From Acidobacteriota bacterium (GTDB lineage: Bacteria; Acidobacteriota; Vicinamibacteria; Vicinamibacterales; UBA2999), in contig JAKFYH010000022.1 in the NCBI GenBank assembly GCA_021730945.1, positions 1 through 64,000 of the forward strand: a stretch of 64,000 bases of DNA. Reading direction: 5' to 3'. Below are positions 53,038 to 63,066 of this stretch, one piece after another (position 1 is the first letter of the stretch; each line of letters starts with the position of its first letter). The notes below the pieces were generated by a model. The model was not told where the DNA came from and did not search any database. It saw only the letters and a program-made list of their open reading frames with translations. A program made the position numbers and the translations under genes.

Positions 53038-53388
53038 ATGTCTACCGCGTCGACCATCGAGACGTTTCCCAACCCGCGACCCGAACGCACGTTCGAGATT
53101 GCAATCGACTGTCCCGAGTTTACGTCGATGTGCCCGAAGACGGGACTCCCCGACTTTGGCGTCATCCGTATCCGCTACGTGCCCGATGCCCGCTGCATCG
53201 AACTCAAGTCCCTCAAATACTATCTGCTGGAGTTCCGGAACAAGGGAATTTTCTACGAAGCGGCCACCAACCAAATCCTGGACGACCTGGTCGCCGCCTG
53301 CGCCCCCAGGAAAATGACCGTGGTCGGCGATTTCACCGCCCGGGGCGGGATCACCACCAAGGTGACCGCCGACTACACCCAGGGCTGA
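53038..53388 (+). CDS. queF: NADPH-dependent 7-cyano-7-deazaguanine reductase QueF
   Basis: A protein of 116 residues, the short unimodular type. The catalytic Cys lies in [15 protein letters not shown] (about 32), followed by [34 protein letters not shown], the QueF core that binds preQ0. It reduces preQ0 to preQ1 for queuosine in tRNA. No other queuosine gene is nearby. It converges on the MinD-like gene with 4 nt between stops. Confidence 0.94.
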
Positions 53389-57448: not shown

Positions 57449-59767
57449 ATGCGAACCGACGACGTAGTGGTGGTCCGTGACGAGAGTTGGACGGTGGCCC
57501 GCACGGAGAACTTCGAGCACTGCACGATCTTCACACTGGATGGCTGCGGACCTGGTAACTGGGGTCGCCGCCTTCAGGCCATTGCCCCGTTCGACCACGT
57601 CACCCGCGCTCAGGCGGCGCCGCCCAGGTGCCGCAAGCGCGCCGCGGTCTTGCGCCGTGCCCTCGGCGTCATCGCCCAGGAGCAACCGGCGCTCGGGCTC
57701 TGGACCGCGGCTGATGCCCGTCTCGACCTGTTGGCGTACCAATTCGAGCCGGCGCTGTCGGTGCTGCGCGGAGCCACGCGCGTCCTGCTGGCCGACGCGG
57801 TCGGCCTGGGCAAGACTGTTCAGGCCGGTCTCATCCTGGCCGAACTCCAGGCCCGGGGCCTGGTCGAGCGGGCGTTGATCGTGTGCCCCGCCGGGCTTCG
57901 CGAGTCGTGGGCCGGCGAGCTGCGCGATCGCTTTGGCATTGCCGCTGCCGTGCTCGATCACTCCGCCATTACCGGCGACCTCCGGTTTCTGCCGGCCCAC
58001 GTCAATCCGTGGTCGGCCCATCGGGTGATCGTCGCGTCGATCGATTTCATCAAGCGACCGGAAGTGCTCGCGGCGGCCGAGGGCGTGGCGTTTGACCTGG
58101 TCATCGCCGACGAAGCGCACCACCTGACGCCCGACAGCGACCGCGCGCGCGCGGTGCATCGCCTCGCCACCCGCGCCCCCTGGGTGATCCTGGTGTCGGC
58201 GACGCCGCACTCTGGCGATCAGGCTGCTTTCGACTTCATGACTTCGATTGGAGCCCTGGGTGATCGGCTCACCGTGTTCCACCGCAGCCGCGCCGACATC
58301 GGGCGGCCCAGGAATCGACGGACGCGACGGGTGGCGGTAAGGCCGACCGCGGACGAGTCGCAGCTGCTGGACGCCGTCGACGACTACGCCCGCGCCATCT
58401 GGCACGGCCGCGGCCGCTCCGACTACGCAGTCCAGTTGGTGGCCATCACGCTCGCCCGTCGTGCGGCGTCAAGCGCCACGGCGCTTGGCCGCACGCTCGC
58501 GCGCCGGCGCGCACTGCTGTCGGGCAACGGCCCGGCGACACCGGCGCAGCCGGCGCTTCCCTGGGATGAAGTCGATGACGAGGATGGCGCCGAGCCGACG
58601 CAGTGGCTGGCCCAGCCCGGCCTGCCAGACGAGGAGGTCGAGCGGAGACGCCTGAGTGCGCTGATTGATCTGTCGCGCCGGGCGGCAGCCTGCTCGTCAA
58701 AGCTGGCACGCCTGCGGCGTTTCCTCGCCCGGGCCGGAGAGCCGGCGGTGGTCTTCACCGAGTATCGCGACACGCTGGAGGCCGCCGCGGTCACGCTCTC
58801 GGCGGCCTTCCGGTTGGGCGTCATCCATGGCGGCGTGCCCGCGCCGATCCGCCAGGATGTCGTCCGGCAGTTCGACGCCGGCTGCATCGACGTGCTGCTG
58901 GCGACTGACACCGCCGGCGAGGGGCTCAACCTGCACCGGCGATGCCGGCTGGTGATTGATCTCGAGCTGCCGTGGAATCCCCGCCGCCTTGAGCAACGCG
59001 TGGGCCGGGTTGACCGGCTCGGCCAGCAGCGCCGGGTCCACGCCCTTCACCTGGTTCATCGCGGGTCGGTGGAGGACCGGGTCTGGCGGCACCTCGAGCA
59101 GCGGCGCCGGCGAGCCACCGAGGTGCTGTCCGGTTGGGACGCGCCCACGGTCGACGACGTGGCGCGAACCATCTACGACGGCGTCGCCGCCCATCGGCCG
59201 TCGATCACCACCCCGTTCGCGACGCGAATGGACGGTGCGGACGACGAAGTGCGGCGCGTGTCCGGCCAGCGGCAGTGGCGGGCGCGCCTGGGCGTCGTTC
59301 GCCACGACACGGTCTTCGCCCGAGCGCGGCGCCCGTGGCAGTCCACAGCGGCCGCCGCCTTGTTTGAAGCGGTGCAGTTGGGTCCGCACGGCAGCGTGAT
59401 CGAGCGGCGCATGCACGCCCGCAAGATCCTGCTTCACGGTGTGCACACCGCGGCGGCCTGGCGGGAAGTGCTCTCGTCGCTCCTGAACGCCGGCGTGGAT
59501 GGCGGCGCGGACGCGCGCCTCACGGCCACGCGGCTGGCGGTGCTGGCACGGATAGATGCGGCGAGGACGCGGTTGGCGGCTCAGTCAGGGTTGCACCAGG
59601 GTTCGCTGTTCGAAGGGCGGGCGGACCATGCCGCTAACGCCGGGCGCGAACTCGCCGCCCATCTCGACCGCGCGCTGGCGAGGCGCGCCGAATCGCTGGC
59701 CGTCACCGACCTCGGTCCAGTCAACTCGCGGCTGGTAGCGATCTGGCCGCTCACATCAAGATCGTGA
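57449..59767 (+). CDS. SNF2/RapA-type helicase of a putative defence pair (DrmD-like)
   Basis: A protein of 772 residues. Superfamily 2 motifs: LADAVGLGKTVQAGLIL (I, about 113-129), VIADEAHH (II, about 216-223), ILVSATPHSGD (III, about 247-257), VFTEYRDTLE (IV), LLATDTAGEGLNL (V) and LEQRVGRVDRLGQ (VI, about 514-526), the last with the SNF2/RapA form. Motif Ia-like SWAGEL follows. No nuclease motif is seen; the C-terminal 200 residues are Ala/Arg-rich and helical. The closest known setting is DrmD, the SNF2 helicase of class 1 DISARM, which pairs with an adenine methylase. The methylase gene starts within its stop codon (GTGA). It probably translocates on DNA. Confidence 0.83.
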   Translation: MRTDDVVVVRDESWTVARTENFEHCTIFTLDGCGPGNWGRRLQAIAPFDHVTRAQAAPPRCRKRAAVLRRALGVIAQEQPALGLWTAADARLDLLAYQFEPALSVLRGATRVLLADAVGLGKTVQAGLILAELQARGLVERALIVCPAGLRESWAGELRDRFGIAAAVLDHSAITGDLRFLPAHVNPWSAHRVIVASIDFIKRPEVLAAAEGVAFDLVIADEAHHLTPDSDRARAVHRLATRAPWVILVSATPHSGDQAAFDFMTSIGALGDRLTVFHRSRADIGRPRNRRTRRVAVRPTADESQLLDAVDDYARAIWHGRGRSDYAVQLVAITLARRAASSATALGRTLARRRALLSGNGPATPAQPALPWDEVDDEDGAEPTQWLAQPGLPDEEVERRRLSALIDLSRRAAACSSKLARLRRFLARAGEPAVVFTEYRDTLEAAAVTLSAAFRLGVIHGGVPAPIRQDVVRQFDAGCIDVLLATDTAGEGLNLHRRCRLVIDLELPWNPRRLEQRVGRVDRLGQQRRVHALHLVHRGSVEDRVWRHLEQRRRRATEVLSGWDAPTVDDVARTIYDGVAAHRPSITTPFATRMDGADDEVRRVSGQRQWRARLGVVRHDTVFARARRPWQSTAAAALFEAVQLGPHGSVIERRMHARKILLHGVHTAAAWREVLSSLLNAGVDGGADARLTATRLAVLARIDAARTRLAAQSGLHQGSLFEGRADHAANAGRELAAHLDRALARRAESLAVTDLGPVNSRLVAIWPLTSRS

Positions 59768-62700
59768 TTGCCGGCATCGACGGCCCACTGGTGTCGCACG
59801 CCTATCTCGAGCAGCAGGTGTTGCCCTCGCTCGACCCGGTGACGACTGCGGCGTTCGAGCGGCAGGCGCTCAAGTGGTGGCGCGGCGTGACACGCCAGAT
59901 CGGTCCGACCGCGGGCGCCCGCCAGGTGTTCGATGTCGCCACGGCGCCGTTACTCAACAGCCTGGGCTACTCGGTCTCGATGGTCCGGCCGGCCGGGGGC
60001 GTGTTGGTGGCACTGGCCGCTTCAGGCAGCGGCGCCACGGTGCTGGTGGTGGCGATGCCCTGGGAAATGCGCGTCGACCTGGCCTGGCGCGAGGCGGTTC
60101 CAGACGCGGCAGGCGCCGAGGCGCAGTGGGCCCTGTTGACCAATGGACGGAGCCTGCAGATCGTGGATTGCGCCAGGCCGTGGGCAAAGCAGTCGCTGCA
60201 GTTTGAGTTCGCGTCACTGCTCGCCCAGCCGGGCGGCGCACCGCTGCTCTGGTCACTGGCAGGGGCACACGCCACCGGCGGCTCCGGGCCTCAGGCGCTG
60301 CGAGAACGGGTTGACGCCTCGGCCGCGCAAGCCGCACGCGTGTGTCACGCGCTCGGCGACGGCGTGCTCACGGCCCTGCCCGCCCTGGCCTCGTCTTTGT
60401 CGGCGGGCCGAGCGCCGACACGAGCGGCGGATCCCTACGACCAGGCACTCACCGTGGTCTACCGGGTGCTGTTCCTGTTGTTCGCCGAAGCCCGCGGGCT
60501 CGTGCCGACGTGGCACGCCGTGTATCGCGAGGCCTACACCATCGACGCACTCTGTCAACGTGCGGCCGGCGCCGGTCCGTCACGCGGCCTCTGGGCAGCC
60601 CTGCAAGCCACGGCACGGCTGGCGCATGCCGGCTGCCAGGCCGGTGACCTTGACGTCACGGCGTTCAACGGCCGGTTGTTCTCGCCGCGCCATGCCCCAC
60701 TCGTCGAGAAGCGACGCGTGCCGGACGAAGTGGTTCGTGCCCTGATCCTCGCACTGGCCACGGTCGACACGCCAGCGGGACGCCGGCGCATTGCCTATCA
60801 TGATCTCGGTGTCGAACAGCTCGGAGCCGTCTACGAGCGGGTCCTGGAACATGAGCCGGTCGCGACCCGGTCCGGCGTGGTGTTGCAGCGCACGTCGACC
60901 GAACGAAAAGCCACCGGCAGCTTCTACACCCCTCGCTCGATCACCGAGTTCCTGGTGCGGCGGACCCTGCACCCGCTGGTCGTGGACCGGCCGGCCCGCG
61001 ACATTCTTGGCCTGCGAGTAGTCGATCCCGCCATGGGCAGCGGCGCCTTTCTCGTGGCCGCCTGCCACTACCTGGCCGACCAGTGCGAGCAGGCCCTGCT
61101 GCGCGACGGTGAGTGGACGGCGAGGACGGTCTCACCAGCCGACCGCGCCGGTCTTCGCCGCCGGGTCGCCGAGCAGTGCCTGTACGGCGTCGACTTGAAT
61201 CCGACGGCCGTGCAATTGGCCCGCCTCTCGTTGTGGCTGACCACCCTTGCGGCCGGCAAGCCCCTGACCTTTCTCGACCATCACCTGGCCGTCGGCAACA
61301 GCTTGATTGGTGGCCGGCTCGCCGACCTGGCAAGTCCGCCTCGACGGGGGCGGCGGCACTCGCCGGCATCCCTGCCGCTCTTTGACGATGACGCGTTGAC
61401 GACTGCGGCAGAGCAAGTGCTGCCGGATCGCCTGCGCCTCGGCCTGGAGGCATCGGATTCGCTCCAGGCGGTTCGGAACAAGGAGCGGTTGTTCGATCGG
61501 CTGTCTGCGCCGGGCGGTCCATTCGCCAACTGGACCCGCGCCCTCGACGCGTGGTGCGCGGCGGCGCTGTGGCCCGGCGTCCCGCCATCACCCGCGGTGG
61601 TGACCGAGTGGCTGGCATCGCTGCTTGGCGGCGCCACCACAGTGCCGGTCGCGCAGTTGACGCGATCGCTGGCAGAGGCCGCTGCCGTCGCGGCCGACCA
61701 CTCGGTCTTTCACTGGGAGCTGGCGTTTCCCGAAGTGTTCTTCGACACCGCCGGCCATCGGCGCGGCGACGGCGGTTTCGATGCGGTGCTCGGCAATCCA
61801 CCCTGGGACATGCTGCGCGCCGACTCCGGATCGGCCGCCGCGCGCGGGGCCGATCGCCAGCGCGCGGTGCCGGTTCGCCGCTTCTTTCGCGACTCAGGCG
61901 TCTTCACCGCCCAGGGTCATGGCCACGCCAATCGCTATCAGTTGTTCGTCGAGCGGACCCTGCAGCTCACCAGGCCTGGCGGACGCTTCGGGCTCATTCT
62001 TCCCTCGGGCATCGGCACCGATCACGGCAGTGCGCCGCTTCGTCATCGGCTGTTCGATCGCACCGCGCTCGACACCTGGATTGGCCTCGACAACAAGGCG
62101 GGCATCTTCCCCATTCACCGCAGCGTCCGATTCGTCGTGATGGCCGCCACCAACGCCGGCCGGACCGACATGCTGCGCTTCGCGTCTGGCCTTCAGGATC
62201 CCGCCGTTCTCGATCGGTGTGCGAGCGACCCTCGCCACGACGAGGGCGCCCGGTGGCTCGGCGTGACCCGCTCCCGGCTGGCGGCGTGGGACCGCGAACA
62301 TCTGACGGTGCCGGCGGTGTCATCAGCGGACGACCTGGCCATCCTGACCGCCGTTTCGGCGATCGCGCCGCCACTGGGCGACGTGCGGGGATGGCACGCG
62401 CGCTTCGGTCGCGAACTGAACGCCACCGACGACCGGGCGCACTTCGTCCCGATCCCGCGCCGGGGTCGCGGGTCGCTGTTGCCGATCGTGGCCGGCAAGC
62501 ACCTGGCCCCGTTCCAGGTGCGCGATGACCTTGCGACCCTCGCCATCACCCCTCAAGCCGCCGGACGGCTGATCGATCCCGCCATCAGCTTCGCGCGCGA
62601 CCGCATCGGCTATCGCGATGTCGCCGGTGCCACCAACCGGCTGACGTTGATCGCCGGCCTCGTGCCCAGGAGCGTGGTGTCGACGCACACCGTGTTCGTG

Positions 62701-63066
62701 TTGAAGACGCCGCTCGACCGGCAGTCGCAGTGGTGCCTGCTTGGGCTGCTCAACAGCCTGATGGCGAACTTCCTGGTGCGGCTCAACGTCACCACGCACG
62801 TCACCACCGCGCTCATGGCGAGGCTGCCCGTACCCAGGCCGGCGATGGGCTCAGCGGCGTTTGCCGACATCGCGGCGCTGGCGCGGCGGCTGGCCGGCGC
62901 CGGCATCGACTCCGCGCCTGATGCCTACGCACGCCTGAACGCCATTGCCGCCCGCCTCTACGGCATCGGCGGCGACGACTACGCCCACGTCGTCGCCAGC
63001 TTTCCCCTCCTGCCGCCGGCGCTGCGCGATCGGTGCGTTGCGGCGGAGCGCGACCTGGCCGGCTAG
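59764..63066 (+). CDS. Large adenine-specific DNA methyltransferase (DrmMI/type IIG-like)
   Basis: A protein of 1100 residues. The methylase core has SFYTPRSITEFLVRRTL (about 387-403), SAM motif VDPAMGSGAFLVAACHYL (about 420-437), LYGVDLNPTAVQLARLSLWL and catalytic DAVLGNPPWDML (NPPW, about 671-682), the gamma-class N6-adenine type shared by Eco57I, PglX and DrmMI. The last ~350 residues probably recognise the target. An N-terminal region (about 40-150) ends in AQWALLTNGRSLQIVD, which resembles the LTNGxxWxLYD strand of type IIG nuclease domains, but no PD-(D/E)xK residues are evident. The GTG start is coupled to the helicase. Its stop shares CTAG with panE. Confidence 0.85.
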   Translation: MIAGIDGPLVSHAYLEQQVLPSLDPVTTAAFERQALKWWRGVTRQIGPTAGARQVFDVATAPLLNSLGYSVSMVRPAGGVLVALAASGSGATVLVVAMPWEMRVDLAWREAVPDAAGAEAQWALLTNGRSLQIVDCARPWAKQSLQFEFASLLAQPGGAPLLWSLAGAHATGGSGPQALRERVDASAAQAARVCHALGDGVLTALPALASSLSAGRAPTRAADPYDQALTVVYRVLFLLFAEARGLVPTWHAVYREAYTIDALCQRAAGAGPSRGLWAALQATARLAHAGCQAGDLDVTAFNGRLFSPRHAPLVEKRRVPDEVVRALILALATVDTPAGRRRIAYHDLGVEQLGAVYERVLEHEPVATRSGVVLQRTSTERKATGSFYTPRSITEFLVRRTLHPLVVDRPARDILGLRVVDPAMGSGAFLVAACHYLADQCEQALLRDGEWTARTVSPADRAGLRRRVAEQCLYGVDLNPTAVQLARLSLWLTTLAAGKPLTFLDHHLAVGNSLIGGRLADLASPPRRGRRHSPASLPLFDDDALTTAAEQVLPDRLRLGLEASDSLQAVRNKERLFDRLSAPGGPFANWTRALDAWCAAALWPGVPPSPAVVTEWLASLLGGATTVPVAQLTRSLAEAAAVAADHSVFHWELAFPEVFFDTAGHRRGDGGFDAVLGNPPWDMLRADSGSAAARGADRQRAVPVRRFFRDSGVFTAQGHGHANRYQLFVERTLQLTRPGGRFGLILPSGIGTDHGSAPLRHRLFDRTALDTWIGLDNKAGIFPIHRSVRFVVMAATNAGRTDMLRFASGLQDPAVLDRCASDPRHDEGARWLGVTRSRLAAWDREHLTVPAVSSADDLAILTAVSAIAPPLGDVRGWHARFGRELNATDDRAHFVPIPRRGRGSLLPIVAGKHLAPFQVRDDLATLAITPQAAGRLIDPAISFARDRIGYRDVAGATNRLTLIAGLVPRSVVSTHTVFVLKTPLDRQSQWCLLGLLNSLMANFLVRLNVTTHVTTALMARLPVPRPAMGSAAFADIAALARRLAGAGIDSAPDAYARLNAIAARLYGIGGDDYAHVVASFPLLPPALRDRCVAAERDLAG

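What the first reader, a model, noticed from the sequence alone, without database searches (positions are those of the whole stretch)
57449..63066. Compact SNF2 helicase plus adenine methylase pair, possible new defence system
A RapA/SNF2 helicase and a large N6-adenine methylase are fused at the translation level (GTGA) and flanked by housekeeping genes. The pair resembles DrmD and DrmMI of class 1 DISARM, but drmA, drmB and drmC are absent on both sides within the window. It could be a DISARM remnant or a self-sufficient two-gene system in which the methylase protein supplies target recognition and the helicase the translocase.
Basis: partly seen in the sequence, partly recalled or inferred. 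Interest (0 to 1): 0.75.

Follow-up and report, generated by a model that had tools for sequence, protein, structure and literature searches.

The report
Lineage-core SNF2 translocase plus adenine methylase
Two adjacent genes, a DNA-tracking motor and a DNA-marking methylase, look like half of a known bacterial immune system but have been inherited together, at a largely stable place on the chromosome, across most of one order of soil and water bacteria (probably Vicinamibacterales), without the immune system's other half.

Summary
A RapA/SNF2 translocase (57449-59767) and an Eco57I/PglX-type m6A methylase (59764-63066) overlap by GTGA and lie between housekeeping genes. The DISARM-remnant reading is not supported: the helicase scores 275 bits against the DrmD cut-off of 610, the methylases form their own clade, and the genome has no DrmA/DrmB, only a housekeeping MrfA helicase. 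Methylase orthologues occur in about 93 of 149 genomes of the order (Acidobacteriota, probably Vicinamibacterales) and in none of the sampled genomes of the phylum outside it. The helicase lies directly upstream in the 28 loci examined. The site is shared by many families, the pair tree follows rpoB (8 of 13 splits), and relatives without the pair show a clean deletion or methylase remnants there. Catalytic motifs are invariant and dN/dS is 0.2-0.35, yet these are the fastest-evolving genes of the block. No nuclease active site was recognised. Best reading: a vertically inherited version of the helicase-methylase unit of class 1 DISARM and ARMADA, working without their YprA-type helicase and nuclease. 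Genome marking is likely; whether the role is defence or regulation is undecided, and I slightly favour policing of unmarked DNA.

The parts
57449..59767 (+). RapA-like SNF2 translocase, 772 aa: N-terminal small beta-barrel (about 1-50), SNF2 ATPase core (about 90-560; Walker A GLGKT, DEAH, motif VI), RapA-like C-terminal domain with the LF-containing motif (QxGLFDR in most relatives)
   Evidence: Pfam, alignment A2 with invariant motifs, AlphaFold2 model pLDDT 81.9, best PDB match RapA E 1e-25
59764..63066 (+). Eco57I/PglX-type m6A DNA methylase, 1100 aa: N-terminal domain with PD-(D/E)xK-like layout but no conserved catalytic residues (about 45-175), helical part, methylase core (DPAMGSGAFL 421-430, NPPW 678-681), target-recognition region (about 865-1030)
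   Evidence: Pfam, alignment A1, AlphaFold2 model pLDDT 84.7, best PDB matches BrxX/PglX and CamA
59764..59767 (+). GTGA overlap of the helicase stop codon and the methylase start codon
   Evidence: sequence; overlaps or short gaps at the junction recur in relatives (some values there depend on the start codon chosen)

Best explanation
The pair is an ancestral, vertically inherited two-gene module, near-core in one acidobacterial order (probably Vicinamibacterales). It is a diverged form of the RapA-like helicase plus PglX-like methylase unit that class 1 DISARM and ARMADA also use, but it works without their YprA-type helicase, DrmB and nuclease. Shown: two intact, co-inherited, constrained enzymes with no recognised nuclease active site. 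Inferred: the methylase writes m6A at an asymmetric sequence whose identity has changed slowly across the order, and so marks the chromosome. Inferred and least certain: the translocase loads at unmarked sites or stalled methylase-DNA complexes and tracks along unmarked DNA, clearing bound proteins or polymerases or exposing the DNA to host nucleases, which gives a mild innate barrier to foreign DNA rather than classical restriction.
For: Methylase orthologues in about 93 of 149 genomes of the order, helicase directly upstream; none among sampled genomes of the phylum outside the order. Recurring chromosomal site plus clean deletion and remnants at that site. Pair follows rpoB (Mantel r 0.755 and 0.727; 8 of 13 splits shared, shuffles mean 0.28, maximum 4). 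Helicase and methylase distances correlate at 0.93. Motifs invariant; dN/dS 0.20-0.35. Own clade beside DISARM and ARMADA-like methylases. No DrmA/DrmB. Policing role: in ARMADA the Walker residues of the RapA-like helicase and NPPW of the methylase are needed for phage defence (PMC12458937); the pair evolves faster than its neighbours and is lost repeatedly.
Against: No experiment, methylome or expression data. Near-core synteny and vertical inheritance are unusual for a defence system. No effector nuclease. The tested ARMADA needs all four of its genes, so two of them alone may not defend. Some families keep the pair at a different site.
Confidence: 0.45

Rival explanations
1. A core epigenetic system. 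The methylase is an order-wide m6A writer comparable to CamA, CcrM or DnmA; the RapA-like motor clears RNA polymerase or nucleoid proteins so that sites can be methylated, or reads the mark. The role is gene expression or chromosome maintenance, not defence.
For: Near-core, vertical, largely syntenic distribution. No recognised nuclease. Recognition region relatively conserved: mean identity 0.51 against 0.39 in the DISARM control. Structural matches to CamA and RapA. Precedent: B. subtilis DnmA (YeeA), flanked by a helicase gene yeeB and a nuclease gene yeeC, methylates GACGAG, affects promoters and did not restrict DNA uptake (PMC7261158).
Against: Repeated loss, including within the window's genus, and faster evolution than all neighbours tested. 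The nearest relatives belong to defence systems.
Confidence: 0.35
2. A degraded DISARM: DrmD and DrmMI left after loss of drmABC, now without function.
For: Best library hits are DrmD and DrmMI; decayed copies exist at the same site in G103 and G055.
Against: Curated DrmD score 275 against a cut-off of 610. Genuine DISARM in the same order scores 1068 and 1353 bits and co-exists with the pair in G005, G018 and G110. Separate methylase clade. Invariant catalytic motifs and dN/dS 0.2-0.35.
Confidence: 0.04
3. The pair is the operonic part of a DISARM/ARMADA-like system whose YprA-type helicase is encoded elsewhere, namely the MrfA-like helicase of the same genome.
For: ARMADA and DISARM use a YprA-type helicase with this helicase-methylase pair. 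An MZB-bearing helicase was found in 23 of 25 genomes searched; in G000 it is an 817-aa MrfA-type protein.
Against: MrfA-type helicases are common DNA-repair proteins and no linkage to the pair was seen. Presence of MrfA in pair-less relatives was not compared.
Confidence: 0.12

Closest known systems
Class 1 DISARM (DrmD + DrmMI with DrmA, DrmB, DrmC)
   Same: Helicase-methylase gene order and protein families; some DrmD proteins share the C-terminal LFD motif
   Different: No DrmA, DrmB or DrmC; helicase 772 aa against about 1070, methylase 1100 aa against about 1340; scores far below genuine members; lineage-core instead of patchy
ARMADA (RapA-like helicase ArmA + PglX-like methylase ArmB + YprA-like ArmC, in type II also ArmD; PMC12458937)
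   Same: RapA-like helicase gene directly followed by PglX-like methylase gene
   Different: No YprA-like or GajB-like gene beside the pair in any of the 28 loci; ARMADA-like loci L146 and pTA78 carry a DruE/YprA-like gene; separate methylase clade
DnmA-YeeB-YeeC of Bacillus subtilis (PMC7261158)
   Same: Nuclease-deficient type IIG-like m6A methylase encoded beside a helicase gene
   Different: No YeeC-like nuclease gene; methylase gene follows the helicase gene instead of preceding it; relationship by sequence not tested here
BREX PglX/BrxX and the BrxHII helicase; orphan methylase CamA
   Same: Best structural matches for the methylase are BrxX/PglX (E 3e-17) and CamA (TM-score 0.70 on the target); RapA-like motor architecture as described for BrxHII (PMC12839542)
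   Different: No BREX partner genes seen beside the pair; the methylase carries an N-terminal domain and a motor partner that the CamA chains (about 550 residues) lack

Membership tests
Class 1 DISARM | SNF2 helicase scoring above the curated DrmD cut-off | tested here: not met
   275.5 bits against a cut-off of 610; genuine DrmD in L144 gives 1068 bits to the PADLOC model
Class 1 DISARM | drmA, drmB and drmC present | tested here: not met
   None in the window; the only DUF1998/MZB protein of the genome is an MrfA-type helicase. Control L185 has all three
Class 1 DISARM | DrmMI-type adenine methylase | tested here: inconclusive
   Same superfamily (336 bits) but a separate clade
ARMADA | YprA-like helicase in the operon | tested here: not met
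   No such gene beside the pair in 28 loci
[quoted passage not shown]
Type IIG restriction-modification | Active PD-(D/E)xK nuclease in the methylase protein | tested here: not met
   No D, E or K conserved on the strands at residues 70-100 in 21 orthologues; the fold assignment of this domain is by inspection only
Core orphan adenine methylase (CcrM, Dam or CamA type) | Near-universal vertical presence in a clade | tested here: met
   About 93 of 149 genomes of the order, with losses: near-core, not universal
Core orphan adenine methylase (CcrM, Dam or CamA type) | One fixed methylation motif with effect on expression | not testable with these tools
   Only indirect: recognition region relatively conserved
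Anti-phage defence system | Reduces phage or plasmid success | not testable with these tools
   Needs experiment

The most novel reading that the evidence does not exclude
The pair is a core epigenetic machine of a bacterial order: an m6A writer paired with its own SWI2/SNF2 remodeller, inherited vertically and not used for restriction, evolved from the same unit that DISARM and ARMADA use for defence.
Probability: 0.3. Interest if true: 0.85.

Novelty: new variant of a known kind. Interest (0 to 1): 0.6.

Why it matters
Helicase-methylase pairs recur in DISARM, ARMADA and BREX-related systems, but what the pair does by itself is not clear. Here selection appears to have kept the pair alone over an order-wide radiation, which makes it a natural minimal system in which to test that. 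It is also a case of a defence-type module that became near-core and vertically inherited, either as innate immunity or as an epigenetic regulator. No paper describing it was found in the searches made.

Tried and rejected
DISARM remnant: rejected. ARMADA: no YprA-like neighbour. Link to 7-deazaguanine DNA modification through the neighbouring QueF (53038-53388) and the weak DpdE similarity: rejected as synteny, because QueF stays in pair-less genomes and is the genome's only strong QueF match. A third gene: a small PF13366 ORF follows the methylase in L021, L022, L025 and L178 but not in the window or most loci. A first rpoB comparison used wrongly picked ORFs and gave no correlation; it was replaced, which selects rpoB by a known motif. 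Paper searches for the pair in Vicinamibacterales found nothing.

Full report
WHAT IS THERE. Window 57449-59767 (+) encodes a 772-aa SNF2-family protein and 59764-63066 (+) a 1100-aa Eco57I-type adenine methylase; stop and start overlap as GTGA. The neighbours are an M14 peptidase, QueF, an HU protein, a sigma-54 response regulator and a ketopantoate reductase. The methylase is the only Eco57I-family protein found in this genome.

NOT DISARM. PADLOC ranks DrmD and DrmMI first (247 and 336 bits), but a genuine class 1 DrmD and DrmMI from the same bacterial family (L144) score 1068 and 1353 bits. The curated DrmD model gives 275 bits against a cut-off of 610. The only DUF1998/MZB protein of the genome is an MrfA-type helicase, so no DrmB is present and no DrmA was seen. 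In a tree with nine methylases from loci with a DrmD above the cut-off and seven ARMADA-like or other methylases, the 21 pair methylases form one group with SH-aLRT 99; the tree is unrooted and comes from a short search. Controls behaved as expected: L185 holds drmD, drmMI, drmA, drmB and drmC; L146 and plasmid pTA78 hold a DruE/YprA-like gene beside their helicase-methylase pair.

DISTRIBUTION. In 149 genomes of the order, 101 have a methylase hit at E<=1e-20. Leaving out seven genomes with only distant relatives and one with only a remnant (G103), about 93 have an orthologue, most of them 40-50% identical and full length, some cut by contig ends (counted by me from the table). The helicase search places the partner directly upstream on the same strand. 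In a phylum-wide sample, matches at E<=1e-60 lie in the order except one (G219), a distant methylase without the helicase beside it. The genome-contig scan found 131 relatives; the best 78 loci carry acidobacterial titles apart from a few (Cyanobacteria, Acidimicrobiia, Bifidobacterium, Gemmatimonadaceae) that are probably mislabelled. The other relatives were not shown, and the scan reaches near relatives only. By contrast, DrmD above its cut-off occurs in 12 of 297 genomes of the phylum sample. The order name is inferred from record titles and the size of contig G003 (7,480,314 bp).

VERTICAL INHERITANCE. In 28 loci the pair sits in recurring contexts: response regulator, HU and QueF on one side and often ketopantoate reductase on the other. 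In a minority of families the flanks differ. Distances among 16 genomes correlate with rpoB (Mantel r 0.755 for the methylase and 0.727 for the helicase, P about 2e-4) and with each other (0.93). The pair tree shares 8 of 13 splits with rpoB, against a mean of 0.28 and a maximum of 4 in 2000 shuffles. Relatives without the pair show loss at the same site: in G077 of the same genus the M14 and ketopantoate reductase genes lie about 120 bp apart; G103 keeps a 186-residue and G055 a 71-residue methylase fragment; G088 is empty.

CONSTRAINT. Methylase motifs I and IV and helicase motifs I, II and VI are invariant or nearly so. Within the genus dN/dS is 0.27-0.35 (helicase) and 0.20-0.25 (methylase): purifying, but higher than most neighbours (0.02-0.24), and protein identity is the lowest of the block. 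Synonymous distances near 1 make these ratios rough. The recognition region (865-1030) has mean identity 0.51 in the family against 0.39 in the DISARM control, while the methylase core has 0.55-0.63 against 0.49-0.54. This suggests, but does not show, a slowly changing target sequence.

STRUCTURE. The methylase model (pLDDT 84.7) matches BrxX/PglX, CamA, M.BseCI and type IIG enzymes. Residues 45-175 have the strand and helix order of a PD-(D/E)xK domain, but no acidic or lysine residue is conserved on the relevant strands, so a nuclease there, if the fold call is right, is dead; that call is by inspection. The helicase model (pLDDT 81.9) matches RapA best, with an N-terminal small beta-barrel and a C-terminal domain. 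In six genomes (G094, G125, G065, G143, G137, G089) the C-terminal domain, with its QxGLFDR motif, lies in a separate ORF between helicase core and methylase, which looks like a gene fission.

MECHANISM. Shown by sequence: two intact, co-inherited enzymes without a recognised nuclease. Inferred from the family: m6A marking at an asymmetric site. Undecided: whether the motor polices unmarked DNA or remodels DNA for methylation or expression. For defence speak kinship with ARMADA, whose Walker and NPPW residues are essential (PMC12458937), fast evolution and repeated loss. For regulation speak near-core synteny, lack of a nuclease and the DnmA precedent (PMC7261158). I put policing slightly ahead (0.45 against 0.35).

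LIMITS. No experiment, methylome or expression data. Most genomes are metagenome-assembled. Family names are hidden codes. No sequence comparison with DnmA was made. Whether other lineages hold stand-alone pairs was sampled only lightly.

Noticed in passing
L038:6917-9308; L198, L199, L200, L202, L178: In six genomes of one family the helicase is split into a core ORF of about 575-625 aa and a separate 190-250 aa ORF with the QxGLFDR motif, just before the methylase. It looks like a natural gene fission; a frameshift was not excluded in each case.
   Followed up: partly
L146:1231-13423; L150 and L197 (Thermus aquaticus pTA78): ARMADA-like loci in which PADLOC labels the RapA-like helicase DpdE, the methylase DrmMI and the YprA-like helicase DruE; library labels of these systems overlap.
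   Followed up: partly
L021:13750-14091; L022:5778-6050; L025:6693-7070; L178:12644: A small PD-(D/E)xK (PF13366) ORF directly follows the methylase in some relatives but not in the window.
   Followed up: partly
window 53038-53388: QueF gene that stays close to the pair's site in many families and remains in genomes that lack the pair; the only strong QueF match in the genome.
   Followed up: yes
L043, L073, L080, L098: Record titles such as Cyanobacteria, Bifidobacterium breve, Acidimicrobiia and Gemmatimonadaceae on contigs carrying the pair; at least L080 appears to be a mislabelled acidobacterial genome.
   Followed up: partly
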